61,790 nucleotides of DNA from Neoroseomonas rubea (GTDB lineage Bacteria; Pseudomonadota; Alphaproteobacteria; Acetobacterales; Acetobacteraceae). The notes under the pieces were generated by a model that was not told the origin of the DNA, made no database searches, and saw only the letters and a program-made list of their open reading frames with translations. The position numbers were made by a program, and so were the translations under genes. Below are positions 3,690 through 27,618 of the stretch, piece by piece. The stretch is from contig NZ_JACADQ010000004.1 in NCBI RefSeq assembly GCF_016106015.1, positions 1 to 61,790 on the forward strand, in the 5' to 3' direction. Each line of letters starts with the position of its first letter. Position 1 is the first letter of the stretch.

Positions 3690-3743
3690 AGCAGCGTACC
3701 GGGCGCGGCGCTTGCATGGCCGCGCCCGGATCGGAGTGCACCC

Positions 3744-4727: not shown

Positions 4728-4730
4728 GCC

Positions 4731-8402: not shown

Positions 8403-10077
8403 CGATCGCGATACCTTCCCGCCGCGGATCCGCCCCGCCGAGCATCCCATCCTGCGTCACGCGGATGATCTGCAGGCCCGAGACCATGTCGCGGATCTGC
8501 ACCTCATGCCCGCGCGCGCGGAGCGCGGATGCCAGCGCGGCGGCCGGCGTCTCGGCCTCCAGTTCCACCGCGCCGCCGATGGTGCCCACATGCGGCAGGG
8601 CGGCGGCTTCCTGCGGCGTCATGCCCCAGTCAAGAAGTGCGACCAGCGCCTGCGCAACATAGCCGATGATGCGCGCACCGCCCGGCGAGCCGGCGACGGC
8701 ATGCAGCCGCCCCTGATCGTCGAGCACGATGGTGGGCGACATGGACGAACGGGGCCGCTTGCCGCCTTCGACGCGGTTCGCGACAGGCCGGCCGTTCTGC
8801 TCCGGCGCGAAGGAGAAGTCGGTAAGCTCGTTGTTCAGCAGGAAGCCGCGCACCACGACGCGCGCGCCGAACAGCGATTCGATCGTCGTCGTCATGGCGA
8901 CTGCGTTGCCGTCCGCGTCCACGATGGAAAGATGGCTCGTGCCGGCCTCGAACTCCTGCGCCTGGGGCGCGAAGCGCGTCTCTCGCCAGGGTGGATTGCC
9001 GGGGCGAGGCGTGGCGATCGCACGGTCGCGGTCGACGAGTTGCGCGCGCGCGGTCAGGTAGCCCGGATCCGTCAGCCCGCGCACCGGCACCGAGACGAAG
9101 TCCGGATCGGCCAGGTAGGCGTTGCGGTCGGCGAAGGCCAAGCGCCCAGCCTCCCCGATCAGATGCGCTGCCTCGGCGCCGCGCGGATCGAGCCGCGCCA
9201 TGTCGAAATGCCCGAGCAGGCCGAGGATCTGCGCCACCGCGACGCCGCCCGATGAGGGCGGCGGGAAGCCGCACACGCGATACCGGCGATAGGGCGTGCA
9301 GACCGCATCCCGCCGGCGCGGCGCGTAGGTCGACAGGTCGGTCGCCGCCATCACGCCGGGGTTGGAGGGATGGCGCGTGACCGCGGCGAGGATGTCCTCC
9401 GCGATCGGGCCGCGCGCGAGCGCTGCGGCGCCTTGCTCGGCGATTGCGCGCAGCGTCGCGGCCAGCGCCGGGTTGCGCAGCACATGTCCGGCCGGTAGCG
9501 GCAGCCCCTGCGCGTCGAAGAAGTAGGCGGAGGCCCCTGGATCTCGCCGCAGCAACAGCATGTCGCCCGCGATGTCGCGCGCGAGCCGCGCGCTGATCGG
9601 GAAGCCCTGTTCGGCCAAACGAATGGCGGGGTCGAGCAACCGGGCCCATGGCAGGCGGCCGTGCTCGCGATGCGCGGCCTCGAGCATCGCGACTGCGCCC
9701 GGCACGCCAACGGCGCGACCGCCCACTACCGCCTGGAGGAACGGCATCGGCCGGCCGTCGCGCAGGAACAGGTCCGGACCCGCGGCGGCAGGCGCCGTCT
9801 CCCGCCCATCCCAGGCCGCGATGCGTCCGGTACCGGACTGGTAGTGCAGCAGGAAGGCGCCGCCGCCGATACCGGAGGACTGCGGCTCGACGAGTGTGAG
9901 CACCATCTGCACCGCGACCGCGGCATCGACGGCCGAGCCGCCATCCCGCAGCACGGCGAGCCCCGCCTCGGCGGCCAGCGGATGCGCGGCCGCGACCATG
10001 TGTCGCCGCGCCGGTTCGGCAGTGGCGGTCACGCTTGCGAGAAGCAGGAGAAGGAGGGTGGCGGCGCGGCAGATCAT
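8395..10077 (-). CDS. ggt: Gamma-glutamyltransferase, exported (GGT copy 1)
   Basis: This Ntn-hydrolase cleaves or transfers the gamma-glutamyl group of glutathione and related peptides. The precursor is 560 aa with a signal peptide ([20 protein letters not shown]), so it acts in the periplasm. The predicted autocleavage nucleophile is Thr380 in GTSHLSIVD, which becomes the first residue of the small subunit. GRETAP near residue 91 supplies the Arg that holds the gamma-glutamyl carboxylate in classical GGTs, and GSPGG near 463 forms the oxyanion region. It overlaps the membrane-protein gene at 8402 and is divergent from yraN with only 17 bp between the starts. It is the most classical of the three GGT-type enzymes in the window. 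Confidence 0.92.
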
Positions 10078-13722: not shown

Positions 13723-14733
13723 TTATCGTGCGGCGCGGGCGGCCAGGCGCATCAGGCGACGGAAATTCCCGGACCAGAGCAGGTCGATCTCCCGCGCCCC
13801 ATAGCCGCGCGCGACGAGTTCCGCCGTCAGGTTCGCCGTGTCGGAGGCGTCCTTCCAGCCCGGGATGCCGCCGCCGCCGTCGAAATCGGAAGACAGGCCG
13901 ACATGGTCGATTCCGATCCGCCGGACGGCATGGTCCACATGGTCGGCCATGTCCCTGACCGTGGCGGGGGACTTGCCGCCGGGCGGGGCGGAGCGGAGGA
14001 AGGCGTCGAGCGCGGTGATCTGGATGAGCCCGCCGGTCGCGCGCAGCATGTCGAGCTGCTCGTCATCGAGGTTGCGCGGATGGTCGCACAGCGCGCGGCA
14101 GCAGGAATGGGTGGCGACGATCGGCACGCGGGAGAGCTCCGCCGCCTGCATCATCGTAGACTTGGCGGAATGGGAGACATCGACCAGCAGCCCCACGCGG
14201 TTCATCTCGGCGATCGCGGCGCGGCCGAGGGCGGACAGCCCGCCATGTTCCGCGATGGCGTCGCCGAGCTCAGGCTTCGGCCGCGCAGCGTCGGCGAGGT
14301 CGTTGTGCCCGTCATGGGTCAGCGTCAGGTAGATGGCGCCGAGCGCGCGCCAGGAAGCGAGGCGCGAGAGGTCACGCGCCAGCGCGTTGCCGTTCTCGAC
14401 CGCGGAGAGCACCGCGAGGGCGCCCGCCGCATGCGCCGCCTCCAACTCCTCCGCTGTCGCGCAGAAGCGGCGCGTCGTGCCGTCGGCGCGGGTGCGGATG
14501 TGGCGCAGCATCGCATCGGCGCGGTCCGCGGCGGCGGCGAGTCCTTCCGCGTCACGCTTTCCCTGCGGCGTATAGGCGATGAAGACCGCAGCCTTCAGCC
14601 CGCCGCGGCGCATCTTCGGGAAGTCGACGCGACGGTCAGTCTCCATGGTCGCATCGGGCGGCTCAGGCCAGCGGATGTCGATGTGCGTGTCGAGCGTGAG
14701 CGTCGCGGCGTGGATGGCGGCGGCTTCGGTCAT
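13723..14733 (-). CDS. Membrane-dipeptidase family (M19) zinc dipeptidase
   Basis: This is an amidohydrolase-fold dipeptidase of 336 aa. Metal-binding motifs are DTHIDIRWP (HxD) near the N terminus, the bridging Glu in SAVENGNAL, His in ATHSCCRAL, and the HVGLSSDFDGG segment near the C terminus. Family members hydrolyse dipeptides, often with a D-residue at the C-terminal side, and sometimes beta-lactams. There is no signal peptide, so it should act on imported peptides in the cytoplasm. The start overlaps the stop of the amidohydrolase gene at 14730 (ATGA), so the two are one operon, divergent from the importer at 15856. A longer frame continuing to 15774 is only chance openness through that gene. 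Confidence 0.88.
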   Translation of the reverse strand: MTEAAAIHAATLTLDTHIDIRWPEPPDATMETDRRVDFPKMRRGGLKAAVFIAYTPQGKRDAEGLAAAADRADAMLRHIRTRADGTTRRFCATAEELEAAHAAGALAVLSAVENGNALARDLSRLASWRALGAIYLTLTHDGHNDLADAARPKPELGDAIAEHGGLSALGRAAIAEMNRVGLLVDVSHSAKSTMMQAAELSRVPIVATHSCCRALCDHPRNLDDEQLDMLRATGGLIQITALDAFLRSAPPGGKSPATVRDMADHVDHAVRRIGIDHVGLSSDFDGGGGIPGWKDASDTANLTAELVARGYGAREIDLLWSGNFRRLMRLAARAAR

Positions 14734-15764
14734 GCCTGGCTCCAGCCGGTCAGGAAGCGTTCGAGCAGCGTGCCGATGAGATCGACATTGTAGCCGCCTT
14801 CCTGGGTGATGGCGGTGGGCAGCTTCAGCGCGCCGATCATCTGGCCGGCACGGGAGAAGCCTTCCTCGGTCACGGCGAGCGCGCCGAGCGGCTCGTCCTT
14901 CGAGGCATCGAAGCCGAGGGCGACGACCAGCGCATCGGCCTTGAAGTCGCGGATGGGCGCGAGGGCGTAGCGCAGCGCGTCGAGCCAGCCTTCGTCCGGC
15001 GTGCCGAAGGGCAGGGGTATGTTCATGTTGCGCCCGTCGCCCGCACCGGCGCCGCGTTCCGCGGTGCGGCCGACGAACCAGGGATAGTAGTTGTCGGGGT
15101 CGCCATGGATCGAGATGGTCAGCACGTCGCCGCGTTCCCAGAAGATGCCCTGCGTGCCGTTGCCGTGGTGGCTGTCGATGTCGAGCACGGCGACGCGCGC
15201 CGCACCCGCATCCCGCAGCGCCTGGGCGGCGAGTGCCGCGTTGTTGATGTAGCAATGCCCGCCGGCGCGGCCCGCATAGGCGTGGTGGCCGGGCGGGCGG
15301 CAGAGCGCATAGGCCGTGCCACCCTTTGCGGCTTCGGCCGCTGCGGCAAGGGCGCAGGCCGCGGCGCCCTTCGCCGCCTCCCATGTGCCTGGTCCGATCG
15401 GGCAGGCGGTGTCCGCCGTGTACCAGCCGGTGCGGGCGATGATGTTCGCACCCGTGCGGCCGCCCTGGGCGACCATCTCGGGCACCGGGTGGATGTTCGC
15501 GACCGCCTCCGGGCCGGGATCCGGGAGTTTCGCCCATTCGGTCGCGGCCGAGGCGAGGTAGTCGAGATAGTCGGCGCGATGCACCGACTCCAGCGCGCGT
15601 GGGGCGAACGGCGGCGCCTTCTCTGGCGCCAGGCCGAGGCGGTGCAGCGCCGCTTCGAGCGCCGCGGCACGCGCCGGGATCTCGAAGTTGCGGCGAACCT
15701 TGCCGCGCTGAAGGAAGAAACCGGGCGAATGCCCTGCCTGGGAGTCGTGCGCGAAGGTCTTCAT
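14730..15764 (-). CDS. Histone-deacetylase-fold amidohydrolase (acetylpolyamine amidohydrolase type)
   Basis: This zinc amidohydrolase of 344 aa belongs to the HDAC/AcuC/AphA superfamily. Bacterial members remove acetyl or larger acyl groups from polyamines, lysines or small amides. Visible catalytic elements are the His pair in RPPGHHA (His160, His161), the zinc ligands in LDIDSHHGNGTQ (Asp197, His199), the second Asp in GFDASKDEPLG, and the catalytic Tyr in EGGYN. The N terminus MKTFAHDSQAGH resembles acetylpolyamine amidohydrolases. A GGAG ribosome-binding site precedes the ATG. It is first in a two-gene operon with the M19 dipeptidase and starts 91 bp from the divergent importer operon, which suggests a shared regulatory region. 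Confidence 0.88.
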   Translation of the reverse strand: MKTFAHDSQAGHSPGFFLQRGKVRRNFEIPARAAALEAALHRLGLAPEKAPPFAPRALESVHRADYLDYLASAATEWAKLPDPGPEAVANIHPVPEMVAQGGRTGANIIARTGWYTADTACPIGPGTWEAAKGAAACALAAAAEAAKGGTAYALCRPPGHHAYAGRAGGHCYINNAALAAQALRDAGAARVAVLDIDSHHGNGTQGIFWERGDVLTISIHGDPDNYYPWFVGRTAERGAGAGDGRNMNIPLPFGTPDEGWLDALRYALAPIRDFKADALVVALGFDASKDEPLGALAVTEEGFSRAGQMIGALKLPTAITQEGGYNVDLIGTLLERFLTGWSQA

Positions 15765-15855
15765 CGTGCTCCAAGGCTAGGCAGCGCTTCGTGCCTTGTC
15801 CACGCGGGCGATCGGGGGATAGCCTTCCCTGGCTTCACGCTCAGGGAGAATGATC

Positions 15856-17445
15856 ATGGCCGTCTCGCGTCGTGGCTTCATGGCCACCGCTGCCACCGCC
15901 CCCGTCCTGATGCGCGCCTCCGAAGCGCTGGCGCAGGGCGTTGCACCGCGGCGCGGCGGCACGTTGCAGATGATGCTGACGCCGGAGCCGCCGGTTCTGC
16001 AGATCGGCGTGAACCAGCAGGGGCCTACGCTCGCGGCCGCGCCAAAGATGTTCCAGGGGCTGCTGACCTTTTCTTCGACGCTCGAGCCGATGCCGCTGCT
16101 CGCCCGGTCCTGGACCATCAGCCCGGACGGAAAGGAATACGTCTTCAACCTCCAGCAGGGCGTGAAATGGCACGATGGGCAGCCCTTCACCGCGGAGGAC
16201 GTGGTCTTCTCCATCATGAAGTTCCACATGGAACTGGCGCCGCGCGCGCGCGCCATCTTCCAGCTCATCGAGACCTGCGAGGCGCGCGACCCGCATACGG
16301 TGCGGATCGTGCTGAAGCAGCCCTTCCAGCCTTTCCTGCTGATGTTCGATGCGACCGCGGCGGCGATGGTGCCGAAGCACCTGTTCGACGGGCGGGACTA
16401 TCGCACGGCGCCCGCGGTGCAGCGGCCGGTCGGCACGGGGCCGTTCAAGTTCACGGAGTGGCAGCGCGGCAACTTCATCCGCCTGGACCGCAACGAGGAG
16501 TACTGGAAGCCGGGCCAGCCCTACCTCGACACGATCATCTACCGCATCATCCCGGACAGCCAGAGCCGCCGCCTCGCCGTCGAATCCGGCCAGGTGCTGC
16601 TGAGTCAGGCCTCCGATATCGAGCCCTTCGACATCCCGGCGCTGCGCCAGCGGCAGAATCTCGAGGTGAACACCAATGGCTGGGAGTATTTCTCGCCGCT
16701 GTCGTGGATCGAGCTGAACCATCGCGTGAAGCCGCTCGACGACGCGCGCGTCCGCCGCGCCATGTCGATGGCGATCGACCGCAACTTCATCGTCAACCGG
16801 CTTTGGTTCGGCGTCGGCAAGCCGGCGACCAACCCGGTCGCGAGCACCACGCGCTTCCATGATTCGTCCGCGCGGCTCGCTGCCTTCAACGTGGCCGAGG
16901 CGAACCGCATCCTGGACCAAGCGGGGTACCCGCGGAACGCGCAGGGCGTGCGCTTCACGCTGAAGCACATGGCGCTGCCCTACGGCGAGATCTGGACGCG
17001 GCTTTCGGAGTATCTCCGCCAGGCGATGCGCAATGTCGGCATCGCCTTCGACATGGAGAGCACCGATGCCGGATCCTGGGCGCGGCGCGTCGGGAACTGG
17101 GAATACGAGACGACCATCAACTTCGTCTACCAGTTCGGCGACCCGACACTCGGCGTCGAGCGCACCTATGTCTCGACCAATATCCAGCGCGTGACCTTCA
17201 CCAACACGGGTGGCTACGCCAACCCGCAGGTGGATGCGTTGTTCCAGCGCGCGCGCGCCTCCGCCGCCGCGGCGGAGCGCCAGGCGGCCTTCAGCGAGGT
17301 GCAGAAGCTTCTCGTCGAGGAAGTGCCGCAGATCTGGCTGATGGAGCTTGCCTTCCCGACCATCCACGACAGGAGGGTCCGGAACGTGATCACCACGGGC
17401 CTCGGCGTGCACACCTCCTTCGACGACGTCTTCATCGCCGGCTGA
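15856..17445 (+). CDS. ABC transporter substrate-binding protein, family 5, Tat signal
   Basis: This is the periplasmic binding protein (529 aa) of the second importer. The N terminus contains a twin-arginine signal (VSRRGFMATAATAPV, ending ASEALAQ), so it is probably exported folded by the Tat system. Family hallmarks are LQQGVKWHDGQPFTAEDV and RRAMSMAIDR in the C-terminal lobe. I prefer the ATG at 15856 to the one at 15850 because GGGAG at 15844-15848 gives a 7-bp spacing to 15856 but only 1 bp to 15850. It heads a nine-gene run to 26652 that also holds several hydrolases, so the ligand is likely their substrate or precursor. Confidence 0.9.
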   Translation: MAVSRRGFMATAATAPVLMRASEALAQGVAPRRGGTLQMMLTPEPPVLQIGVNQQGPTLAAAPKMFQGLLTFSSTLEPMPLLARSWTISPDGKEYVFNLQQGVKWHDGQPFTAEDVVFSIMKFHMELAPRARAIFQLIETCEARDPHTVRIVLKQPFQPFLLMFDATAAAMVPKHLFDGRDYRTAPAVQRPVGTGPFKFTEWQRGNFIRLDRNEEYWKPGQPYLDTIIYRIIPDSQSRRLAVESGQVLLSQASDIEPFDIPALRQRQNLEVNTNGWEYFSPLSWIELNHRVKPLDDARVRRAMSMAIDRNFIVNRLWFGVGKPATNPVASTTRFHDSSARLAAFNVAEANRILDQAGYPRNAQGVRFTLKHMALPYGEIWTRLSEYLRQAMRNVGIAFDMESTDAGSWARRVGNWEYETTINFVYQFGDPTLGVERTYVSTNIQRVTFTNTGGYANPQVDALFQRARASAAAAERQAAFSEVQKLLVEEVPQIWLMELAFPTIHDRRVRNVITTGLGVHTSFDDVFIAG

Positions 17446-17454
17446 GCGCCGGGA

Positions 17455-18437
<983 letters not shown>

Positions 18438-18441
<4 letters not shown>

Positions 18442-19283
18442 GCGACTTCTGGCGGCGCTACCGCCGCAACCGCGGCGCCGTGGTGGGTCTCGTCATCCTG
18501 GCGCTGGTCTTTGCGCTGGCGGGCCTCGCGCCGCTGCTGTTCCCCGGCAGCCCATGGGACATGGCGACCGCGCCCTTCGTGCCTCCGGGTGAGGAAGGGA
18601 TGCTGCTCGGCTCGGACAGCCTCGGGCGCGACGTGGCGGCGGGGATCGCGCATGGGGCGCGCATCTCGCTGATGGTGGGCGCGGTTTCGACCGTCGCGGC
18701 GCTTTCGATCGGCGTGACGCTCGGCGCCTTCGCAGGCTATCTCGGCGGCGTCGCGGACGATGCGGTGATGCGCTTCACCGAATTCTTCCAGACCATTCCA
18801 TCCTTCGTCTTCGCCATCCTGCTGGTCGCGATCTTCACGCCGACCATCTCCTCGGTCGTCTTCGCCATCGCCGTCGTCTCCTGGCCGCCGGTGGCCCGGG
18901 TGGTGCGCGCGGAGTTCCTCTCCCTGCGAAACCGGGAATTCGTCCAGGCCGCGGAGGTGCTCGGCAAGTCGCGCATCTCCATCGTGCTGACTGACATCCT
19001 GCCGAATGCGCTTTCGCCCATCGTCGTTCTGTCCTCGCTGATGGTCGCTTCCGCCATCCTGCTGGAAAGCGCGCTGTCCTTCCTCGGCCTGGGTGATCCG
19101 AATCTGATGACCTGGGGCTTCCTGATCGGCGCAGGACGAAGCGTCATCCGCCTTGCCTGGTGGATGTCGGTTTTTCCGGGCATCGCCATCTTTCTCACCG
19201 TGCTGGCGCTGAACCTGGTGGGGGAGGGGCTGTCGGACGCGCTGAACCCGCGGCTCGCCCGCCAGCGCGGGGGGGCGGCATGA
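18438..19283 (+). CDS. ABC transporter permease, DppC type
   Basis: This is the second channel subunit, 281 aa. An N-terminal helix (about residues 15-37) is followed by the DppC motif LGSDSLGRDVAAG. About five further helices and the EAA loop LRNREFVQAAEVLGKSRIS come next, and the end GEGLSDALNPRLARQ is typical of the family. The start overlaps the DppB stop and the stop overlaps the ATPase start, both by 4 bp. GGAGG stands just before the ATG. It should form a heterodimer with the preceding permease and be driven by the single fused ATPase that follows. Confidence 0.9.
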
Positions 19284-20890
19284 CCCTGCTGTCCGTCGAG
19301 GGCCTTACTGTTGCGCTTCCGCCCGGCGGCGACCGGCCGCACGCGGTGGAAGAGATCACCCTGTCGGTGAATCCGGGGGAGATCGTCTGCGTCGTCGGTG
19401 AATCCGGGTCCGGCAAGTCCATCACCGCCAATGCCGTCATGGGTCTGCTGCCAAAGGGCCTGCCGGTGAAGGCAGGGCGCATCGGCTTCGAAGGCAAGGA
19501 TCTGCTCGCCCTGGGGCCCGAGGCGATGCGCCGCCTGCGCGGGCAGCGCCTGGCGATGATCTTCCAGGAACCGATGACCGCGCTGAACCCCGTCATGCGC
19601 GTGGGGGAGCAGATCGCCGAGGCGATGCGCGTGCATGGCGCGGGCGGGGATGCCGCGCGCCGTGTGCCGGAACTGCTCGCGGCGGTGAACCTGCCGGACC
19701 CCGAGGCGACCGCGCGCGCCTATCCGTTCAGGCTTTCCGGCGGGCAGCGGCAACGCGTGATGATCGCGATGGCGCTCGCACTCGAACCGTCGCTCTTGAT
19801 CGCGGACGAGCCGACCACGGCGCTCGACGTGACCACGCAGATGCAGATCCTGCGCCTGATCCGGGAGATCCAGTCGCGCCGCGGCACGGGCGTCATGTTC
19901 ATCACCCATGATTTCGGCGTGGTGGCGGAAATCGCGGACCGCGTCGCCGTCATGCAGCATGGCCGCATCGTGGAGCAGGGCGCGGCGGCGGAGATCCTGA
20001 ACACGCCACAGCACCCCTACACCCGTGCCCTGATCGCCGCCGTGCCGCACGGCGCCGCATCCTCGGTGGCGCCGCCGAGCAGCGCGCCGCTGGTGCTCGA
20101 AGCGCGCGGGCTGGAAAAGACCTATCGGCGGTCTGGCGGCTGGTTCGGGCCGAAGCCCGTGGTGCGTGCCGTGCACGATGCGGACTTCACGCTGCGGAAG
20201 GGGGAGACACTCGGACTGGTCGGTGAATCGGGTTCGGGCAAGTCCACCCTCGCGCGCTGCGTCGTGCGCCTGGTGGAACCCGAGAAGGGCGAGATTATCT
20301 TCGAAGGCGCCGATCTCCGCCCACTCTCGCGCGGCGCCTGGAAGCCCTATCGCAAGAAGATCCAGATGGTCTTCCAGGATCCCTTCGCGTCGCTGAATCC
20401 CCGCCGGCGCGTTGGCGAGATCATCGCCGAAGGACCGATCACGCATGGTATGGAGCGTGGCGCGGCTCTGGCCCGTGCACGGGACCTCCTGCGGCTGGTG
20501 CAACTCGATCCTGGCGCGATGGACCGCTACCCGCACGAGTTCAGCGGCGGACAGCGCCAGCGCATCGGCATCGCGCGCGCGCTTGCCATGGAGCCTGAAT
20601 TGCTGATCGCGGATGAGCCGGTCAGTGCGCTCGACGTCAGCGTGCAGGCGCAGGTTCTGGCACTGCTGGCCGACATCCGCGCGCGTCTCGGCCTCACCAT
20701 GCTCTTCATCACGCATGACCTGCGCGTTGCGGCGCAGGTCTGTGACCGCATCGCCGTCATGCAGCGCGGCGCGATCGTGGAGCAGGGGCCGACCGTCGAG
20801 GTCTTCGGCAACCCCCGCCACCCCTATACGCAGCAATTGCTGGACAGCATCCCGGGGCGCCACTGGACGCCGCCCGTGATCGCCGCCTGA
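19280..20890 (+). CDS. Fused double ABC ATPase (DppD-DppF type in one chain)
   Basis: One 536-aa polypeptide carries both nucleotide-binding domains of a peptide-type importer, like GsiA or YejF. Domain 1 has Walker A GESGSGKS at residues 40-47, signature [15 protein letters not shown] and Walker B LLIADEPTTALD. Domain 2 has Walker A GESGSGKS at 315-322, signature [15 protein letters not shown] and [13 protein letters not shown] short linker (about 255-270) joins them, and the Cys-rich C-terminal extension of separate DppD/F proteins is absent. The ATG at 19280 overlaps the permease stop. GsiA-type fused ATPases import glutathione, but fusion alone does not fix the substrate. Confidence 0.92.
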   Translation: MTLLSVEGLTVALPPGGDRPHAVEEITLSVNPGEIVCVVGESGSGKSITANAVMGLLPKGLPVKAGRIGFEGKDLLALGPEAMRRLRGQRLAMIFQEPMTALNPVMRVGEQIAEAMRVHGAGGDAARRVPELLAAVNLPDPEATARAYPFRLSGGQRQRVMIAMALALEPSLLIADEPTTALDVTTQMQILRLIREIQSRRGTGVMFITHDFGVVAEIADRVAVMQHGRIVEQGAAAEILNTPQHPYTRALIAAVPHGAASSVAPPSSAPLVLEARGLEKTYRRSGGWFGPKPVVRAVHDADFTLRKGETLGLVGESGSGKSTLARCVVRLVEPEKGEIIFEGADLRPLSRGAWKPYRKKIQMVFQDPFASLNPRRRVGEIIAEGPITHGMERGAALARARDLLRLVQLDPGAMDRYPHEFSGGQRQRIGIARALAMEPELLIADEPVSALDVSVQAQVLALLADIRARLGLTMLFITHDLRVAAQVCDRIAVMQRGAIVEQGPTVEVFGNPRHPYTQQLLDSIPGRHWTPPVIAA

Positions 20891-20899
20891 GGATCCGAC

Positions 20900-22195
20900 A
20901 TGACCGATGCGACCGACCCCGGCCTGCGCCGCGCAATCCTGGATGCGGTGGAGGCGCTGCGCGAGGACTCCGTGCGGGTGCTGGAACGGCTGGTCCGCTG
21001 CCCCTCCACGCTTGGCAACGAGCAGTCGGCGCTGAACGAGATGACGCGGATCTACGAGGCGCTGGGCCTCGCGCCGCGCCGCGTGCCGACGGACCCGGCG
21101 GCGCTCGCCGCGCATCCCGGCTTCTCGCCCCCGCTGATCTCCTATGACGGCCGCGACAATGTCGTGGCGGTCCACACGCCGCGCGAACGCAAGGGGCGGA
21201 GCCTCGCCTTGCAGGGGCATGTGGACGTCGTCCCCGAGGGCGCGGCCGACATGTGGGAAACGCCGCCCTTCGCGCCGTCCATCCGCGACGGGCGGATGTA
21301 CGGGCGCGGCGCGGGGGACATGAAGGCGGGCATCGTCTCCTACGTCACGGCCTTCCGCGCGTTGCGGCTTGCCGGCGTCCAGCCTGCCGCCGAGGTGCAG
21401 ATGCAGTCCGTGATCGAGGAGGAATGCACCGGCAACGGCGCGCTAGCCGCCATGCTCGCCTTGCCGCGCACCGACGCGGTTATCATCCCCGAACCCGGCC
21501 CCGGCCTGCCTGCCATGTATTCGGCCGAGGTCGGCGTGGTCTGGGCCTGGGTGACCGTCTCCGGCCGCCCGGCCCATGTGCGCGACATGCAGGCTGGCCT
21601 CAACGCCATCAAGGCAGCCAACGCCATCGCCGCGCGCTTCGAGGACTACCAGCGCGAGATGAACCGCGCCGAGCGCATCCATGCATCCTTCCGCGGCGTG
21701 AACCACCCGGTGAACGTGAATTTCGGCACCATCGAGGGCGGGGAATGGAATTCCTCCGTGCCCACGCGAGCGCGCATCGGCATGCGCGTGGGCGTGATGA
21801 TGGGCTACACCGCCGCGCAGACGAAGGCGGACATCGAGCGGCTGGTCGCCGAGGCGGCGGCCGACCCGGCGCTGAAGGGCGCGACGGTGAAACTCGAATT
21901 CAAGGGCTTCATGGCCGATCCCTGCGTCTTCGACATGAACGCGCCGATCGTGACCCTGGCGAAGCGCAACTTCGCGGATGTTTCCGGCGGCTTCCTTCGG
22001 GACTATCCCGCGACCGGGCTCACGGACGGCCGTTTCTTCACGCTCTATCAGGACACGCCGGTCGCCTGCTTCGGGCCTGATGCGCAGGAGATCCATGGCA
22101 TCGACGAGAGCGTCGGGCTCGATTCCATGCACGACATCACGCGCACCATTGCGCTGACCATGGCCGAATGGTGCGGGTTGGAGAAAGCGGCATGA
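20900..22195 (+). CDS. M20 family metallo-deacylase (ArgE/DapE-like)
   Basis: This zinc hydrolase of 431 aa is in the ArgE/DapE/ACY1 family, which removes acyl groups from N-acylated amino acids. Metal-site motifs are LALQGHVDVVPEG (HxD) and RGAGDMKAG, followed by the catalytic IEEECTGNG and the C-terminal HGIDESVGLDS. The dimerisation-domain motif GRPAHVRDMQAG lies between them. The start has a GAGGATC ribosome-binding site 9 bp after the importer ATPase, and the stop overlaps the next ATG. Being in the importer operon, it most likely acts on the imported compound rather than in arginine or lysine biosynthesis. Confidence 0.86.
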   Translation: MTDATDPGLRRAILDAVEALREDSVRVLERLVRCPSTLGNEQSALNEMTRIYEALGLAPRRVPTDPAALAAHPGFSPPLISYDGRDNVVAVHTPRERKGRSLALQGHVDVVPEGAADMWETPPFAPSIRDGRMYGRGAGDMKAGIVSYVTAFRALRLAGVQPAAEVQMQSVIEEECTGNGALAAMLALPRTDAVIIPEPGPGLPAMYSAEVGVVWAWVTVSGRPAHVRDMQAGLNAIKAANAIAARFEDYQREMNRAERIHASFRGVNHPVNVNFGTIEGGEWNSSVPTRARIGMRVGVMMGYTAAQTKADIERLVAEAAADPALKGATVKLEFKGFMADPCVFDMNAPIVTLAKRNFADVSGGFLRDYPATGLTDGRFFTLYQDTPVACFGPDAQEIHGIDESVGLDSMHDITRTIALTMAEWCGLEKAA

Positions 22196-23430
22196 ACTTG
22201 CGTTTCGATGCCGCGAGGCTCTGGGACAGCCTCGCGCAGATGGCGCGCATCGGCGCGCGGCCCGATGGCGGCGTAAACCGCCTGGCGCTGACGCCGGAAG
22301 ACGGCGCGGCGCGGGCCCTGCTGCGCGACTGGGCGCTCGCGGCGGGCTGCACGCTTTCCGTCGATCGGCTCGGATCGATGGTGCTGACCTATCCGGGCGC
22401 CGATACGTCACTGCCTGCGGTCGCGATCGGCAGCCACCTCGACAGCGTGCCGACGGGCGGCAAGTACGACGGCGCCTATGGCGTGCTGGTCGGGCTCGAG
22501 ATCGTCCGCGCCCTGCACGCGGTTGGCGCAAGGACGCGGGCGCCGATCGGCATCGTCAACTGGACCAACGAGGAAGGCGCGCGCTTCGCCCCGCCCATGG
22601 CGGCGAGCGAGGTCGCGATGGGGTTCGCCAGCGAGCAACGATTGCTGGAAACGCCCGACCGCTTCGGCGAGACGACTTTCGCCGCGGCTCTTGCCGATTG
22701 CGGCTGGCAGGGCCCCGACGACCCCACCGCAGCACGGGGCTTCGGCGCGTATTTCGAGGCGCACATCGAGCAAGGCCCGGTGCTGGAGCGCGAGGGCATC
22801 CCGCTCGGCATCGTCACGCATGGCTACGGCGTCGCCTACTGCACCATCACCATCACGGGGCGCGACGGGCATATCGGCGGCGCCATGGCGGACCGGCGCG
22901 ACGCGCTGCTCGGCGCGGCGGAGGTGATCCTGACGCTCGAGAGCATCGCGCTCGGCACGGCGGGACGAGGCCTCGCCTCGGCCACGCGCCTCGCCCTCTC
23001 CCCCGATGCGCGCGGCAACATCCCCTCCGAGGTGCGCCTGGTCGCGAGCCTGCGCAACATCGAGCAGGAGGGGCTCGAGGCTATGCGCGCGACGCTCGCC
23101 GCCGCCTGCGAGGAGATCGCGCGGCGGCGCCAGATGCCGATCATGATCGAGTATGTCTCCGGCTATCCCTCCGTCCGCTTCGATCCTGTCCTGCTGCAGC
23201 GGCTGAGGGACGCGGCGGCGGTGGCGGGGCTCGCGCATCGCGACCTGCCGACGCCGATCGGGCACGATGCGCTGCATGTCGGTCGCGTTGTTCCCTCGGC
23301 CATGCTCTTCATTCCCTGCCATGGCGGGCTGAGCCACAACCCGGCCGAAAGCATCACGCCGGAATGGTCGGCCGCCGGACTCGCCGCGCTCGCGCCGGCG
23401 GTGATCGAAACCGCGGGAGGTCTCGCATGA
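22192..23430 (+). CDS. M20 family Zn-dependent hydrolase, carbamoylase type (copy A)
   Basis: This enzyme is in the N-carbamoyl-L-amino-acid hydrolase / allantoate amidohydrolase / beta-ureidopropionase group, 412 aa. Metal and catalytic motifs are IGSHLDSVPTGGKYDG, WTNEEGARF, EAHIEQGPVLE and PCHGGLSHN near the C terminus. Members hydrolyse N-carbamoyl or ureido amides to release ammonia. The substrate-gating segment reads GRDGHIGGAMADRRDA, which differs from the usual AHAGTTPM form. It overlaps both neighbours by 4 bp and is followed by a paralogue of exactly the same length. Confidence 0.88.
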   Translation: MNLRFDAARLWDSLAQMARIGARPDGGVNRLALTPEDGAARALLRDWALAAGCTLSVDRLGSMVLTYPGADTSLPAVAIGSHLDSVPTGGKYDGAYGVLVGLEIVRALHAVGARTRAPIGIVNWTNEEGARFAPPMAASEVAMGFASEQRLLETPDRFGETTFAAALADCGWQGPDDPTAARGFGAYFEAHIEQGPVLEREGIPLGIVTHGYGVAYCTITITGRDGHIGGAMADRRDALLGAAEVILTLESIALGTAGRGLASATRLALSPDARGNIPSEVRLVASLRNIEQEGLEAMRATLAAACEEIARRRQMPIMIEYVSGYPSVRFDPVLLQRLRDAAAVAGLAHRDLPTPIGHDALHVGRVVPSAMLFIPCHGGLSHNPAESITPEWSAAGLAALAPAVIETAGGLA

Positions 23431-24665
23431 ACGTTCCCCTGTCTGGACCGAGGCTCTGGGACAGCCTGATGGAGATGGCGCGGATCGGCGGCACGCCGAA
23501 GGGCGGCTGCAACCGCCAGACGCTGACCGATCTCGATTCCGAAGGCCGCCACCTGCTGCGCCGCTGGGCGGAGGCGGCGGGCTGCACCATGCGTGTCGAT
23601 CGGCTCGGCAACATGATGCTCACGCGCCCGGGGCGCGATCCGTCCCGCAAGCCGGTCGCCTTCGGCAGCCACCTGGATACGCAGCCGACGGGCGGAAAGT
23701 TCGACGGACCGCTCGGCGTCCTCGCAGGGCTTGAGATTCTGCGCGCGGTGCATGAGGCGGGGATCGAGACCGCCGCACCACTCATGCTCGTCAACTGGAC
23801 GAACGAGGAAGGCGCGCGCTTCTCGCCCCCCATGATGGGCAGCGGCGCCGCCATGGGCCTCTTCACAGAGGCCGAGGTGCTGGCGAAGCAGGACCCGGAT
23901 GGCAAGGCGTTCGGTGCCGAACTCGCCCGCATCGGCTGGCAGGGCGAGGCCGACCCGGCGGCGCTGCAGGACGTCGAGGCCTATTTCGAACTGCATATCG
24001 AGCAGGGCGCGCTGCTGGAACGCGCTGGCCTTGATGTGGGCGTGGTTACGCATGCGCTCGGCCAGACCTGGTACGAGGTGACGGTCGAGGGCGAGGAAGC
24101 GCATGGCGGCTCCCCCATGGCCGGGCGGCGCGATGCGATGATGGCGGCCGCACCCTTGATCGCAGCGGTCGAGGAGATCGCGCTTGCCGCCGTCAGCGCG
24201 ACCGGAGAGCCCGGCCGCGCGACGGTCGGCCGGCTCACGGTCTATCCCGACAGCCGCAACATCTGCCCCTCCCGCATCTGGTTCAGCATCGACACGCGCC
24301 ATGGCGACCCGGCGATGCTCGCGCGCATGGGGGAGGAGATCCGCGCCCGCGCCACTGCCATCGCGGCCGCGCGCGGCGTGCGCATCGCGGTCGAGGAATT
24401 CTGGCACGCGCCGCTGACGCCCTTCGACGCGACGCTGGTCGGGCGCGTGCGCGATGCGGCGCAGCGCCTCGGAATTCCGCACATGGACATGCCGACTGGA
24501 ATCGGCCACGACGCGGTCTATGTCGCGCGCCGCGTGCCGGCGGCGATGATCTTCTGCCCTTGCCATGGCGGCATCAGCCACAACGAGGCCGAGAGCATCA
24601 CGCCGGAATGGGCGGAAGCTGGGCTGCGCGTCCTGGCGGATGCGGTGCTGGAGACGGCGCGTTGA
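23427..24665 (+). CDS. M20 family Zn-dependent hydrolase, carbamoylase type (copy B)
   Basis: This second carbamoylase-type enzyme is also 412 aa and aligns with copy A end to end (LWDSL…MARIG at the N terminus, WTNEEGARF, CHGGISHNEAESITPEW at the C terminus). Metal motifs are GSHLDTQPTGGKFDG, ELHIEQGALLE and the final His motif. The central loop reads GEEAHGGSPMAGRRDA, closer to the classical form than copy A. The pair looks like an old tandem duplication that diverged in the substrate site. The two may act on different N-substituted amino acids or form a heteromer. The stop TGA overlaps a TTG start of the next gene. Confidence 0.88.
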   Translation: MNVPLSGPRLWDSLMEMARIGGTPKGGCNRQTLTDLDSEGRHLLRRWAEAAGCTMRVDRLGNMMLTRPGRDPSRKPVAFGSHLDTQPTGGKFDGPLGVLAGLEILRAVHEAGIETAAPLMLVNWTNEEGARFSPPMMGSGAAMGLFTEAEVLAKQDPDGKAFGAELARIGWQGEADPAALQDVEAYFELHIEQGALLERAGLDVGVVTHALGQTWYEVTVEGEEAHGGSPMAGRRDAMMAAAPLIAAVEEIALAAVSATGEPGRATVGRLTVYPDSRNICPSRIWFSIDTRHGDPAMLARMGEEIRARATAIAAARGVRIAVEEFWHAPLTPFDATLVGRVRDAAQRLGIPHMDMPTGIGHDAVYVARRVPAAMIFCPCHGGISHNEAESITPEWAEAGLRVLADAVLETAR

Positions 24666-25162
24666 CCCCGGTGCTGGAAAGCGAGCGCCTGACGCTGCGC
24701 GAATTCCGCGCCGACGATCTCGAGCCCTATGCGGCGTTCTGGGCGAGCGAGGCGTCGCGCTTCGTGGGCGGGCCGTGCGGCCGTAACGACGCCTGGCGCC
24801 GTATGGCGATGTACAGCGGCCACCGTGTGCTGCGAGGTTACGGGATCTGGGCGATCGAGGAAAGCGCGAGCGGCGCCTTCATCGGCCAGGCCGGTCTCTG
24901 GTATCCCGAAGGCTGGCCCGAGCCGGAGATCCACTGGACGGTCTTTCCCGCCCATCAGGGGCGCGGCTTCGCCACCGAGGCGGCACGACGCGTGCGGCGC
25001 CATGCGCGCGACGAGCTTGGCTTCACGCGCCTCGTCAGTTGCATCGAGCCAGCCAACGGCGCTTCGGTGAAGGTGGCGTTGCGGCTCGGCGCCGAGCGCG
25101 AAGGCAGCGCCAGCGTGCCGCCGCGCATCCTCGACATCTATCGTCACGACATGGGATTCTGA
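24662..25162 (+). CDS. GNAT family N-acetyltransferase (RimJ/RimL-like), TTG start
   Basis: This acetyl-CoA-dependent acyltransferase is 166 aa. It opens with the ESERLTLREFRADDLEPYAAFW segment split over the first strand and helix. The acetyl-CoA loop is visible as HQGRGFATEAARRVRRHAR, and a late segment CIEPANGASVKVALRLG matches RimJ/RimL-type proteins. There is no ATG at the right place. The TTG at 24662 overlaps the previous TGA as TTGA, mirroring the ATGA pattern of the operon, with a GTG at 24671 as an alternative. It may acetylate a product amine as a protection or detoxification step, but that is inference from context. Confidence 0.82.
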   Translation: MTPVLESERLTLREFRADDLEPYAAFWASEASRFVGGPCGRNDAWRRMAMYSGHRVLRGYGIWAIEESASGAFIGQAGLWYPEGWPEPEIHWTVFPAHQGRGFATEAARRVRRHARDELGFTRLVSCIEPANGASVKVALRLGAEREGSASVPPRILDIYRHDMGF

Positions 25163-25164
25163 CG

Positions 25165-26652
25165 ATGCGCATCGCCATCGGCGGCTTTCTCCACGAAAGC
25201 CATTCCTTCGCGCCACTTCCGACCGGCTGGGGCGAATTCGTCAAGCCCGGCGGCTTCCCACCCCTGCAGAAGTCCGCGACGCTGCTCGGCGTACTGCGCC
25301 CGACCTCCTGCCCCGCCGCTGGCGCCATCATGGTGGCAGAGCAGGAAGGCATCGCGATCGCCCCGCTCGCCTGGGGATTCGCTAATCCGGCCGGCCCCGT
25401 CACGGCGGAGGCGTTCGAGCGCATCGCGGCGCTGCTTGTGGCCGCGCTGTCGGATGCGCTGGAGGACGGCCCCCTCGATGGCGTCTATCTCGACCTGCAC
25501 GGCGCGATGGTCGCGGTCGGCTTCGACGATGCGGAAGGGGAAGTGCTGCGCCGCGTGCGCGCCGTGGTGGGCCCGGATGTGCCGATCGCAGCGAGCCTCG
25601 ACCCGCACGCAAACAAGACCGTGGCCATGGTGCGATACGCGGATGTGCTGGTGCCCTTCCGCACCTATCCGCACATCGACATGAAGCCCGCCGGCGCCCA
25701 GGCGACGCGCCTGCTGCTGCGCATGATCCGGGAGAAGCGGCGCCCGGCGAAGGCGTTCCGCGAACTCGATTTCTGGACCCCGCTGCCTGGCCAATGCACC
25801 ATGGTGGCGCCCATGGCCGAGGTGATGGCCGAGCGCGCGCGGCTCGCGGAAGCGGCCGGCGTCTGGGAACTCGGCTTCTGCTTCGGCTTTCCCTACGCCG
25901 ATTTCCCTGGCTGCGGCATGGCGATCGCATCCTTCGCGGACACAGACGAGCAGGCCGCGCAGGCGGCCGATGCGCTCGCGCGCTTCATCACCGCGAAGGA
26001 GCCGGAATTCGCCCTCGGCGTGGTGGAGGCGGCGGAAGGCGTGCGCCGCGCCATGGAAGGCGCGGGCAGCGGCCCCGTCGTGCTCGCCGACACGCAGGAC
26101 AATCCCGGCGGCGGCGGGCATGGGGACACGACGGGACTGCTCGCGGAACTGATCCGCCAGGGCGCGCAGGGCGCCGTGCTCGCGCCCATGAACGACGCCG
26201 AAGCCGCCGCTGCCTGCCATGCGGCGGGGGAGGGGGCGACCATCACCCTCGACCTCGGCGGCAAGAGCGACGGCGCGCCGCTGCGCGTCACCGCCACCGT
26301 CGAACGGCTGTCGGATGGCCGTTTCACGCTGACCGGCCCGATGGGCAAGGGCAATCCCGCCGATCTCGGCCCCTCCGCGCTGATCCGCGTTGCACCCGGC
26401 GTGCGCGTCATCGTCGTGACGCGGAAGATGCAGGGGCACGACCAGGCGCTGTTCCGCTTCATCGGCGTGGAGCCCGCCGAGCAGCGCATCGTCGCGGTGA
26501 AGTCGAGCGTGCATTTCCGCGCCGACTTCCAGCCCATCGCGCAGGAGGTGATCGTGGTCGCCGCGCCCGGCCCCGTGGTGGCGGACCCGGCGGTGCTGCC
26601 TTTCACGAATGTGCGGCCTGGGCTGCGGCTGAGGCCCGGCGCGAATCGATGA
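25165..26652 (+). CDS. MlrC family (M81) metallopeptidase
   Basis: This protein belongs to the MlrC/M81 family, named after the enzyme that cleaves linearised microcystin peptides in sphingomonads. It is 495 aa. Conserved metal-site segments are YLDLHGAM near residue 108, SLDPHANKT near 147 and YPHIDM near 170. The C-terminal domain has ADTQDNPGGGGHGDTT near 307. There is no signal peptide, so it works on imported material. It starts 2 bp after the GNAT stop and ends the nine-gene run; the next gene is convergent. Most family members in soil bacteria have unknown substrates, so microcystin should not be assumed. Confidence 0.88.
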   Translation: MRIAIGGFLHESHSFAPLPTGWGEFVKPGGFPPLQKSATLLGVLRPTSCPAAGAIMVAEQEGIAIAPLAWGFANPAGPVTAEAFERIAALLVAALSDALEDGPLDGVYLDLHGAMVAVGFDDAEGEVLRRVRAVVGPDVPIAASLDPHANKTVAMVRYADVLVPFRTYPHIDMKPAGAQATRLLLRMIREKRRPAKAFRELDFWTPLPGQCTMVAPMAEVMAERARLAEAAGVWELGFCFGFPYADFPGCGMAIASFADTDEQAAQAADALARFITAKEPEFALGVVEAAEGVRRAMEGAGSGPVVLADTQDNPGGGGHGDTTGLLAELIRQGAQGAVLAPMNDAEAAAACHAAGEGATITLDLGGKSDGAPLRVTATVERLSDGRFTLTGPMGKGNPADLGPSALIRVAPGVRVIVVTRKMQGHDQALFRFIGVEPAEQRIVAVKSSVHFRADFQPIAQEVIVVAAPGPVVADPAVLPFTNVRPGLRLRPGANR

Positions 26653-26685
26653 TGCGGGCGCGCCTAACGCTGCCGGCCTCGGCGA

Positions 26686-27618
26686 TCAGCTATCCCTTGC
26701 CTGGCTGAGCAGGGCGCGGACCGCTGCCACGCGGGGGATGGGCGCGACGGCGCCGTAGCCCGTGGTGGAGAGAGCGGCCGCGGCATTGGCATAGCGCGCC
26801 GCCATGATGGGCTCGTCGCCGGCGAGCGTCCTGGCGAGGAAGGCGCCGGCGAATGCGTCCCCCGCACCGGTCGCGTCCACTGCTGCGACGGCATGTGGCG
26901 CGATGCGCGTCCGCCCGTCCCGCGTCGCGACGATGCACCCCGCCGCGCCGCATTTCAGCAGCACCAGCGGACAGAGGCGGAGGTAGAAATCCGCGACCCT
27001 GTCCGGGTCGGACAGGCCGGTCAGCACCGTGGCGTCGTCGAGCGAGGGAAGGGCGATGTCGGCCATGCCGATCGCGGCGTGGATCACGGCCGCCGCCCGC
27101 GCGGCGGGCCAGAGGCGCAGCCTGAGATTCGTGTCGTAGGAGACGCGCGCACCGGCATCCCTCGCGACGGCGATGGCGCGGAAGACCGCGTCGCAGGCGC
27201 TGTCCGAGATCGCCTGGCTGATGCCCGAGACGTGCAGCACGCGCGCGGCGCGGATCGCGCCCTCCGGCACCTCCTCAGGCCGGTAGCGCGCGGCGGCGCT
27301 GCCGGTGCGGTAGAAGGTGAAGTTGTGGCCGCGCGCTTCATGGGTGACGAAGTAGATGCCGGTCGGCGCATCGGCGCGGCGGATCACGGTCTCGGTGTCG
27401 ATGCCTTCCCGGGCCCAGAGCGCCATGAAGGACTCTCCCGGCCCGTCCTGCCCGATGGCGGTCACGTAGCCGACTGAGGCGCCGGAGCGCGCCGCGGCGA
27501 TGGCGGCGTTGGATGTGTCCCCGCCATGGCCTTCCAGGTACAGCACGCGGCCATCCGTGCCGGGCTTCTGCTGGTTGAACTCCAGCATCGGTTCGCCCAT
27601 GCAGAGAAGGTCGGGCAT
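26686..27618 (-). CDS. kdgK: PfkB family sugar kinase, probably 2-keto-3-deoxygluconate kinase
   Basis: This cytoplasmic ribokinase-fold kinase of 310 aa is predicted to phosphorylate 2-keto-3-deoxygluconate. The N-terminal signature region reads GEPMLEFNQQKPG then GGDTSNAAIAAARSG, and the C-terminal catalytic motif is DATGAGDAFAGAF, with the second Asp as base. It lies 1 bp downstream of the KDPG-type aldolase gene, which matches the kinase-aldolase order of sugar-acid catabolism and supports KDG over other sugars. I chose the ATG at 27618; a frame reaching 27795 overlaps the aldolase. 2-keto-3-deoxygalactonate kinase is an alternative. Confidence 0.85.
   Translation of the reverse strand: MPDLLCMGEPMLEFNQQKPGTDGRVLYLEGHGGDTSNAAIAAARSGASVGYVTAIGQDGPGESFMALWAREGIDTETVIRRADAPTGIYFVTHEARGHNFTFYRTGSAAARYRPEEVPEGAIRAARVLHVSGISQAISDSACDAVFRAIAVARDAGARVSYDTNLRLRLWPAARAAAVIHAAIGMADIALPSLDDATVLTGLSDPDRVADFYLRLCPLVLLKCGAAGCIVATRDGRTRIAPHAVAAVDATGAGDAFAGAFLARTLAGDEPIMAARYANAAAALSTTGYGAVAPIPRVAAVRALLSQARDS

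What the first reader, a model, noticed from the sequence alone, without database searches (positions are those of the whole stretch)
15856..26652. Nine-gene uptake and hydrolysis operon: importer, three M20 hydrolases, GNAT and MlrC
Seen: nine same-strand genes with gaps of at most 9 bp or 4-bp overlaps join a complete peptide-type importer (Tat-exported binding protein, two permeases, fused ATPase) to an ArgE/DapE-like deacylase, two carbamoylase-type M20 enzymes, a GNAT and an MlrC/M81 protein. Known: each family acts on N-substituted amino acids or unusual peptides. Inference: the operon imports and dismantles one class of modified amino acid or peptide, perhaps N-carbamoyl, N-acyl or cyclic peptide-like. 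I know of no described pathway with this set, and hydantoinase is absent. The divergent HDAC-fold/dipeptidase pair may supply further steps.
Basis: partly seen in the sequence, partly recalled or inferred. Interest (0 to 1): 0.7.

Follow-up and report, generated by a model that had tools for sequence, protein, structure and literature searches.

The report
Conserved importer and amide-hydrolase gene cluster
A bacterium carries a conserved set of genes that probably imports a small molecule whose nitrogen is capped and then cuts it apart with several metal-dependent enzymes; the parts are familiar, the exact food molecule is unknown.

Summary
Nine + strand genes (15856-26652) are joined by 4-base overlaps or gaps of at most 9 bases. 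The unit is larger and less uniform than reported. A divergent HDAC-fold/M19 dipeptidase pair (13723-15764) belongs to it, facing the operon across 91 bases with face-to-face promoter-like sites that recur in relatives. In 33 loci from the genus, the HDAC-fold gene, ArgE/DapE, one M20 and MlrC stay together wherever the contig reaches; the importer is there in 13 of 30, the M20 copy F in 9 of 33, the GNAT in 0 of 33. Importer + HDAC + ArgE/DapE sets also occur in Azospirillum, Skermanella, Nitratireductor and Paracoccus.

Residue tests narrow the chemistry. The binding protein lacks both residues with which DppA grips a dipeptide. The M20 pair keeps the tested catalytic and carboxylate-binding residues. 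The HDAC-fold protein keeps deacetylase motifs but not the tested polyamine determinants. MlrC keeps its zinc site but not two microcystin contacts.

Best reading: uptake of a small N-capped amino acid or dipeptide and stepwise removal of caps. The substrate is unknown. My searches found no paper on this set. New variant of a known kind.

The parts
15856..17445 (+). A: Tat-type solute-binding protein, SBP_bac_5; Gln426 at the DppA Asp408 position, no Arg at the DppA Arg355 position
   Evidence: PF00496 278.7 bits; DppA comparison
17455..18441 (+). B: importer permease 1
   Evidence: PF00528, PF19300
18438..19283 (+). C: importer permease 2
   Evidence: PF00528, PF12911
19280..20890 (+). D: fused double ATPase of the importer
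   Evidence: PF00005 in two stretches, oligo_HPY
20900..22195 (+). E: ArgE/DapE family deacylase (M20)
   Evidence: NF005306 464.9 bits, cut-off 376; PDB 3pfo
22192..23430 (+). F: carbamoylase-type M20, lineage-restricted tandem paralogue, tested catalytic residues intact
   Evidence: TIGR01879 314.4 bits, cut-off 204; NF006769 442.7, just under its cut-off 452
23427..24665 (+). G: carbamoylase-type M20, core copy, 53% identical to N-carbamoyl-beta-alanine amidohydrolase 8c46
   Evidence: NF006769 549 bits, cut-off 452
24662..25162 (+). H: GNAT acetyltransferase, accessory, TTG start
   Evidence: PF13302; close relative (79%) among all loci held only in L035
25165..26652 (+). I: MlrC-like M81 metallopeptidase, zinc-site residues intact
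   Evidence: PF07364 295.5 and PF07171 203.5 bits
14730..15764 (-). J: HDAC-fold deacetylase related to acetylpolyamine amidohydrolases
   Evidence: PF00850 236.5 bits; PDB 3men, 3q9b
13723..14733 (-). K: M19 dipeptidase
   Evidence: PF01244 305.2 bits; PDB 3b40
15765..15855 (.). divergent promoter-like region: + TTGTCC 15796-15801 / TAGCCT 15820-15825; - TGGACA 15802-15797 / TAGCCT 15779-15774
   Evidence: both sites in 13 of 15 importer-bearing intergenic sequences, the window included; the stricter consensus scan found none

Best explanation
The cluster is a catabolic unit for a small N-capped amino acid or dipeptide-like compound (N-acetyl, N-carbamoyl or similar). A binds it outside and BCD import it. 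Inside, metal-dependent amidohydrolases take the caps and amide bonds off: J a short acyl group from an alkyl amine, E and G (with F as a variant copy) caps next to a carboxylate, K and I internal peptide bonds. The released amino acids feed general metabolism. Shown: gene order, conservation, intact active-site residues and loss of the dipeptide grip in A. Inferred: co-transcription, a single common substrate class, the order of steps and the exact bonds cut.
For: Tight junctions. In 33 genus loci: E and G together in 31 of 31 that reach both, I after G in 30 of 30 that reach it, J divergent from A or E in 30 of 30 that reach both. Face-to-face promoter-like sites recur (13 of 15 importer-bearing sequences). 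Outside the genus: Belnapia has the whole set without GNAT (L039); two Azospirillum records have E, A-D, G and J; Qingshengfaniella, Nitratireductor and Paracoccus have A-D, E and J. In 19 A-like loci from 10 genomes J-like genes occur in 6 and E-like in 5, against 0 and 0 of 20 control regions. A and 8 of 8 homologues compared have Gln where DppA has Asp408 and no Arg at 355; those two DppA residues hold the dipeptide's amino and carboxyl groups and the double charge-reversal mutant binds none (PMC12136057, passages). G, F and G' keep Glu131, Gln196, Arg291 and His385 of RrCbetaAA (PMC10952681, passages). J keeps RPPGHH and EGGY, which PMC11532494 (section 16) ties to removal of acetyl rather than longer chains.
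Against: No substrate, transcript or activity is known. Four plasmid records opened on a match to A list neither an HDAC nor an ArgE/DapE gene in the stretch shown, and 13 of the 19 A-like loci have no J-like gene. Most J-like genes elsewhere stand without the importer: SBP in 2 of 20, carbamoylase-type M20 in 3 of 20, E-like in 3 of 20. M81 genes in general are not tied to importers: SBP plus permease in 3 of 40, any M20 in 1 of 40. The importer is missing in 17 of 30 genus loci, so the hydrolases do not depend on it. The consensus promoter scan found nothing. Genus loci are related, so their counts are not independent. The plasmid loci were picked by me from hit lists, not at random.
Confidence: 0.5

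Rival explanations
1. General salvage of ordinary small peptides: A-D import mixed di/tripeptides, and K, I, E, F, G are broad-specificity peptidases.
For: SBP_bac_5/oligo_HPY importer family; M19 and M81 are named peptidase families; of 10 plasmid M81 loci that I opened, 8 have a similar importer directly beside the M81 gene and 5 of these also list an M20 aminoacylase.
Against: The dipeptide-gripping residues of DppA are absent in A and 8 of 8 homologues compared. J has no evident role in peptide salvage. G and F keep the tested carbamoylase residues.
Confidence: 0.2
2. Acetylated polyamine or acetyl-diamine catabolism led by J, with the other hydrolases incidental.
For: The closest solved structures of J are acetylpolyamine amidohydrolases. 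Class III aminotransferase genes, or a phosphotransferase with one, lie near J in some other clusters.
Against: J lacks MrApaH Glu106 (Ile109) and the PIS motif (PLG). No aminotransferase or aldehyde dehydrogenase family was assigned to genes A-K. Polyamines lack the carboxylate that G's conserved Arg should bind.
Confidence: 0.12
3. Pyrimidine or hydantoin-derived N-carbamoyl amino acid use: F and G as beta-ureidopropionase/carbamoylase.
For: G is 53% identical to a characterised N-carbamoyl-beta-alanine amidohydrolase and keeps its ligand residues.
Against: No hydantoinase family was assigned in the cluster. The genome has another M20 of the same type (C133) and a D-hydantoinase match over cut-off (C102) on other contigs. 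Leaves E, I, J and K unexplained.
Confidence: 0.12

Closest known systems
Dpp/Gsi-type peptide importers (E. coli DppABCDF, GsiABCD)
   Same: Family-5 binding protein, two permeases, ATPases of the same type; D scores best against GsiA, then YejF, both under their cut-offs
   Different: One fused ATPase; the residues that hold dipeptide termini in DppA are not kept in A
N-carbamoyl-beta-alanine amidohydrolase of Rhizobium radiobacter (PDB 8c46)
   Same: G 53%, F 44% identical; tested catalytic and carboxylate-binding residues kept
   Different: F and G' have Gly where the reference has Asn272 (chain numbering); no hydantoinase beside it
Bacterial acetylpolyamine amidohydrolases (MrApaH, PsApaH)
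   Same: Fold family, RPPGHH and EGGY motifs
   Different: No Glu106, PLG in place of PIS
MlrC microcystinase (PDB 7ylq)
   Same: M81 family; E39, H133, D167, H169, H191 and D332 kept
   Different: N41 is His and Q468 is His in I; no gene of families MlrA, MlrB or MlrD assigned among A-K
Azospirillum / Skermanella / Nitratireductor clusters with the same importer, HDAC-fold and ArgE/DapE genes
   Same: Shared genes, in part the same order
   Different: They add, variously, class II aldolase, PanE- or GhrA-type reductase, DMT transporter; no M81 or M19 gene is listed in the stretches shown (the PLSDB gene table is incomplete)

Membership tests
DppA-type dipeptide-binding protein | Arg355 and Asp408 (mature numbering) gripping the dipeptide's carboxyl and amino ends | tested here: not met
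   A has Gln426 at Asp408 and Leu before the aligned Pro-Tyr where DppA has Arg355; no Arg in 8 of 8 homologues
DppA-type dipeptide-binding protein | NCBIfam DppA model over cut-off | tested here: not met
   NF043070 132.4 bits, cut-off 1005
M20 N-carbamoyl-amino-acid amidohydrolase | Glu131, Gln196, Arg291, His385 of RrCbetaAA | tested here: met
   Kept in 10 of 10 F, 39 of 39 G, 8 of 8 G'; the offset of 6 between chain and paper numbering is my inference from the motifs
M20 N-carbamoyl-amino-acid amidohydrolase | TIGR01879 over cut-off 204 | tested here: met
   F 314.4, G 373.3
M20 subfamily PRK09290.1-3 ('allantoate amidohydrolase') | NF006769 over cut-off 452 | tested here: inconclusive
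   G 549.1 met; F 442.7 not met
M20 N-carbamoyl-amino-acid amidohydrolase | Activity on N-carbamoyl amino acids | not testable with these tools
   needs assay
Allantoate deiminase AllC | TIGR03176 over cut-off 597.75 | tested here: not met
   F 152.2, G 231.6
ErtE N-carbamyl-L-glutamate amidohydrolase | NF058540 over cut-off 520 | tested here: not met
   F 278.4, G 336.2
ArgE/DapE family deacylase PRK06837 | NF005306 over cut-off 376 | tested here: met
   E 464.9
Acetylpolyamine amidohydrolase (cluster 4) | RPPGHH and EGGY motifs | tested here: met
   J residues 156 and 322
Acetylpolyamine amidohydrolase (cluster 4) | PIS motif shared by the polyamine deacetylases named in PMC11532494 | tested here: not met
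   PLG in J
Acetylpolyamine amidohydrolase (cluster 4) | Glu106 of MrApaH | tested here: not met
   Ile109 in J; PsApaH also lacks it, so this alone does not exclude activity
M81 metallopeptidase | PF07364 and PF07171 over cut-off, zinc-site residues | tested here: met
Microcystinase MlrC | NF041767 over cut-off 999; contacts N41 and Q468 | tested here: not met
   180.4 bits; His and His
M19 dipeptidase | PF01244 over cut-off | tested here: met
   305.2 bits, cut-off 26

The most novel reading that the evidence does not exclude
The importer subfamily whose binding protein has YQ(Y/F)GDP at the DppA Asp408 site, the HDAC-fold protein and the ArgE/DapE deacylase define a widespread, undescribed pathway of Alphaproteobacteria for one N-capped amino compound. 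In it a histone-deacetylase-fold enzyme works as a small-molecule catabolic deacetylase, and the Roseomonad group has extended the pathway with M81, M19 and duplicated, diverging carbamoylase-type M20 enzymes.
Probability: 0.3. Interest if true: 0.65.

Novelty: new variant of a known kind. Interest (0 to 1): 0.45.

Why it matters
If right, it gives a testable role to several protein families named only by distant relatives (HDAC-fold 'acetylpolyamine amidohydrolases', MlrC-like M81, 'allantoate amidohydrolase' M20 proteins). It offers a binding-protein signature for importers that may not take ordinary peptides although their family is named for peptides. It also shows tandem M20 duplication with the tested active-site residues intact, the F copy being seen only in importer-bearing genus loci (8 of 8 where the importer's place is visible).

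Tried and rejected
M81 as a general marker of importer operons: ten plasmid loci that I opened looked convincing (8 of 10), but one M81 locus from each of 40 of the 76 genomes with a match gave SBP plus permease in 3 of 40 and M20 in 1 of 40, against 0 of 20 controls, so I dropped the general claim.

GNAT as a core gene: a close relative (79%) was found only in L035; a GNAT beside G in L264 is distant (29%) and lies next to a pseudouridine synthase-type gene, so I treat it as unrelated.

D-amino acid theme: D-serine ammonia-lyase lies near M81 in 2 of 10 plasmid loci but a relative was found in 0 of 40 of the wider sample; dropped.

Hydroxylysine or amino-alcohol theme: a phosphotransferase gene with a class III aminotransferase gene occurs near related importers in Chelatococcus, R. 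mucosa, Paracoccus and a Comamonadaceae plasmid, but not in the window. That such pairs are kinase + phospholyase is recalled; one search shows only resemblance to parts of the fused model PRK06148. Kept as a lead.

Microcystin degradation: rejected on residues and model score.

Literature: nine searches were made; six were aimed at the gene set or its parts in combination and three at single proteins. In the listings I saw no paper describing this gene set. Only open-licence papers are held. Papers read in part: PMC10952681, PMC4784309, PMC12474180, PMC9982164, PMC3295651 and PMC12136057 as passages; PMC11532494 as passages and section 16.

Motif meanings for E, K and the twin-arginine signal are recalled, not from a call.
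Full report
Observation. The nine genes are real and correctly placed. Open frames, starts and junctions were read from the sequence: A 15856-17445, B 17455-18441, C 18438-19283, D 19280-20890, E 20900-22195, F 22192-23430, G 23427-24665, H 24662-25162, I 25165-26652. Gaps are 9, 9 and 2 bases, the other five junctions 4-base overlaps. Third-position GC selected seven of the nine frames in my first crude scan; a codon-usage caller found all nine, though it placed the starts of G and H slightly inside.

The neighbours belong to it. J (HDAC fold, 14730-15764) and K (M19, 13723-14733) overlap by 4 bases and face A across 91 bases. I fetched 33 loci from 33 of the 34 same-genus genomes that one search listed; G009 was left out because its only match was a distant (41%) copy. 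In these E and G are together in 31 of 31 loci that reach both, I follows G in 30 of 30 that reach it (in L130 after a 4.1-kb gap), and J is divergent from A or E in 30 of 30 that reach both. K is seen next to J in 26 of 33; I did not check the end of each of the other seven. The importer A-D lies between J and E in 13 of 30 and is absent there in 17 of 30. F is present in 9 of 33, always with the importer where that can be seen (8 of 8; none of the 17 importer-less loci; Fisher p 0.0002, not corrected for kinship). A further M20 copy (G') is present in 2 of 33. H is found in none of 33.

Promoter region. In the 91 bases between J and A there are face-to-face sites, TTGTCC-18-TAGCCT towards A and TGGACA-17-TAGCCT towards J, whose upstream hexamers overlap. 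Among 34 intergenic sequences (window, 30 genus loci, L035, L036, L039) the forward site was found in 14, the reverse in 31, both in 13; mononucleotide shuffles gave means of 0.995, 0.87 and 0.045. Of the 15 sequences with the importer, 13 have both. I chose the pattern after seeing the alignment, and the loci are kin. The stricter consensus scan found no promoter in 15700-26900.

Beyond the genus. Belnapia mucosa (L039) has K-J, A-D, E, G, G' and I in one block without the GNAT. L035 (an Acetobacteraceae MAG) and L036 (a Roseococcus MAG) have K, J, E, G, G' and I but no A-D in the stretch, with a GNAT only in L035; a Rubritepida locus (L037) shows J, G, G' and I but no E. Among the 80 M20 loci kept (the best of 590), a J-like gene lies within the stored stretch in 10, an E-like gene in 6 and an MlrC-like gene in 12 (stretches differ in length). 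Named plasmid records show the importer with an HDAC gene. ArgE/DapE is listed too in Azospirillum argentinense and A. lipoferum, which also have G and a PanE-type reductase, and in Skermanella, Qingshengfaniella, Nitratireductor and Paracoccus; it is not listed in Chelatococcus, Haematobacter, Pseudosulfitobacter or a Comamonadaceae plasmid. Records that I opened and that do not show the link: four HDAC hits without such an importer (Phyllobacterium, Limimaricola, Rhizobium, Parasedimentitalea) and four SBP hits without HDAC or ArgE/DapE listed (Roseomonas mucosa, Tistrella, Sulfitobacter indolifex, Rhizobium). I picked these hits by eye from lists, so they are not a random sample, and the plasmid gene table is incomplete.

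Less biased samples. From 192 genomes of the class, all 19 SBP places with E at most 1e-130 outside the own genome were fetched (some stretches are cut short by contig ends). J-like genes lie in 6 of 19, E-like in 5, class II aldolase in 5, GhrA-type reductase in 5, M81 in 2, carbamoylase-type M20 in 1; in 20 control regions that I placed at round coordinates in genomes of the same sample the counts are 0, 0, 0, 1, 0 and 0 (p 0.008 for J, 0.02 for E). L189 has J facing an aldolase, the importer, E and M81; L191 has J facing the importer and E. Starting from J instead, 20 places (one each from the best 20 genomes) gave E in 3, M20 in 3 and SBP in 2 of 20, against 0, 0 and 1 of 20 controls; two of these places are the same as L189 and L191. 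So most J-like genes elsewhere have other company. Starting from M81, 40 places gave SBP plus permease in 3 and M20 in 1, although 8 of the 10 plasmid M81 loci that I opened had such an importer directly beside them.

Chemistry by residue tests. SBP: against E. coli DppA (L275), A and 8 homologues (seven beside an HDAC gene; R. mucosa L154 beside an M20 only) all have Gln at Asp408, and the residue before the aligned Pro-Tyr, where DppA has Arg355, is Leu, Met or Ile. The motif is YQ(Y/F)GDP in A and 7 of 8, YQVADP in L154. In DppA these residues (436 and 383 in precursor numbering) form the salt bridges to the dipeptide's ends, and the double charge reversal abolishes binding (PMC12136057, passages); replacement of Asp408 was used the same way to argue against dipeptide ligands in another group (PMC3295651, passages). 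A ligand without a free amino group fits, but this is inference. M20: the tested metal and catalytic positions and the carboxylate-binding Arg291 of RrCbetaAA are kept in 10 of 10 F, 39 of 39 G and 8 of 8 G'. Three further positions vary inside F: the Gly and His of GHDA and the Asn after the catalytic His differ in 5 of 10 F, not in the window's F. F and G' share a Gly at the reference's Asn272. J: RPPGHH and EGGY are kept; Glu106 and PIS of the characterised polyamine enzymes are not. P. aeruginosa PA3774, an HDAC-family protein, does not act on acetylpolyamines (PMC4784309, passages), so the fold alone does not name the substrate. I: E39, H133, D167, H169, H191 and D332 of MlrC are kept; contacts N41 and Q468 are His (PMC9982164 and PMC12474180, passages; the match between the two papers' numberings, an offset of 17, is my inference). 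E and K keep motifs that I recall as metal-binding.

Paralogues. In a tree of 82 M20 proteins rooted at the midpoint, F and G' are each one clade (100/100), together sister (97/89, flagged as a possible long-branch join) to the clade of G orthologues (100/97). The M20 of the A. brasilense, A. soli and A. argentinense cassettes joins this group next (98/94); that of A. lipoferum falls elsewhere. So F is not a recent copy of G: if the joins hold, the duplications precede the split of the genus from Belnapia and Rubritepida, and F was kept only in part of one genus. The own genome also has a further M20 of this type on another contig (C133; 48% to 8c46) and a D-hydantoinase match over cut-off on a third contig. 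G, at 53%, is closer to 8c46 than C133 is, so which of them serves pyrimidine breakdown is open.

Conclusion. The unit is probably an import-and-hydrolysis cluster for a small capped amino compound (class-level confidence 0.5). Its enzymes are of known families, its combination recurs, and in nine searches of open-licence papers, six of them aimed at the set, I saw no description of it. The substrate is unknown. I rate it a new variant of a known kind of catabolic operon, of moderate interest.

Noticed in passing
window 2106-7655 (+): A second family-5 importer lies 6 kb from K (SBP scanned; two permeases and two separate ATPases named by their resemblance to B-D). In relative L126, which lacks A-D, an importer whose permease is 92% identical to the one at 4731-5645 lies directly after MlrC on the opposite strand, so it may feed the same hydrolases.
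   Followed up: partly
window 8395-10077 (-): A gene that reads like gamma-glutamyltransferase (named by eye, not scanned) lies near the cluster; in L126 an 84% relative sits close to K and J.
   Followed up: no
L130, between G and I: 4.1-kb gap between the M20 gene and MlrC in one genus member; in the other loci that show both it is under 250 bases where no further M20 copy lies between.
   Followed up: no
L150 (Chelatococcus daeguensis plasmid pTAD1): The importer + HDAC + M20 set lies next to ectoine/hydroxyectoine genes (eutB, eutC, doeA) and a phosphotransferase + class III aminotransferase pair.
   Followed up: partly
L063, L068, L071, L075, L095, L098, L107: In Betaproteobacteria a G-like M20 is followed directly by an MlrC-like gene; in L063, L075 and L107, the three whose genes I called, five genes with the sizes of a branched-chain-type importer precede it (family judged by size only).
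   Followed up: no
G000:C288:1017-2027: Second HDAC-fold gene in the own genome, 44% to J, beside a transaminase-like gene of the branched-chain/D-amino-acid type, under the models' cut-offs.
   Followed up: no
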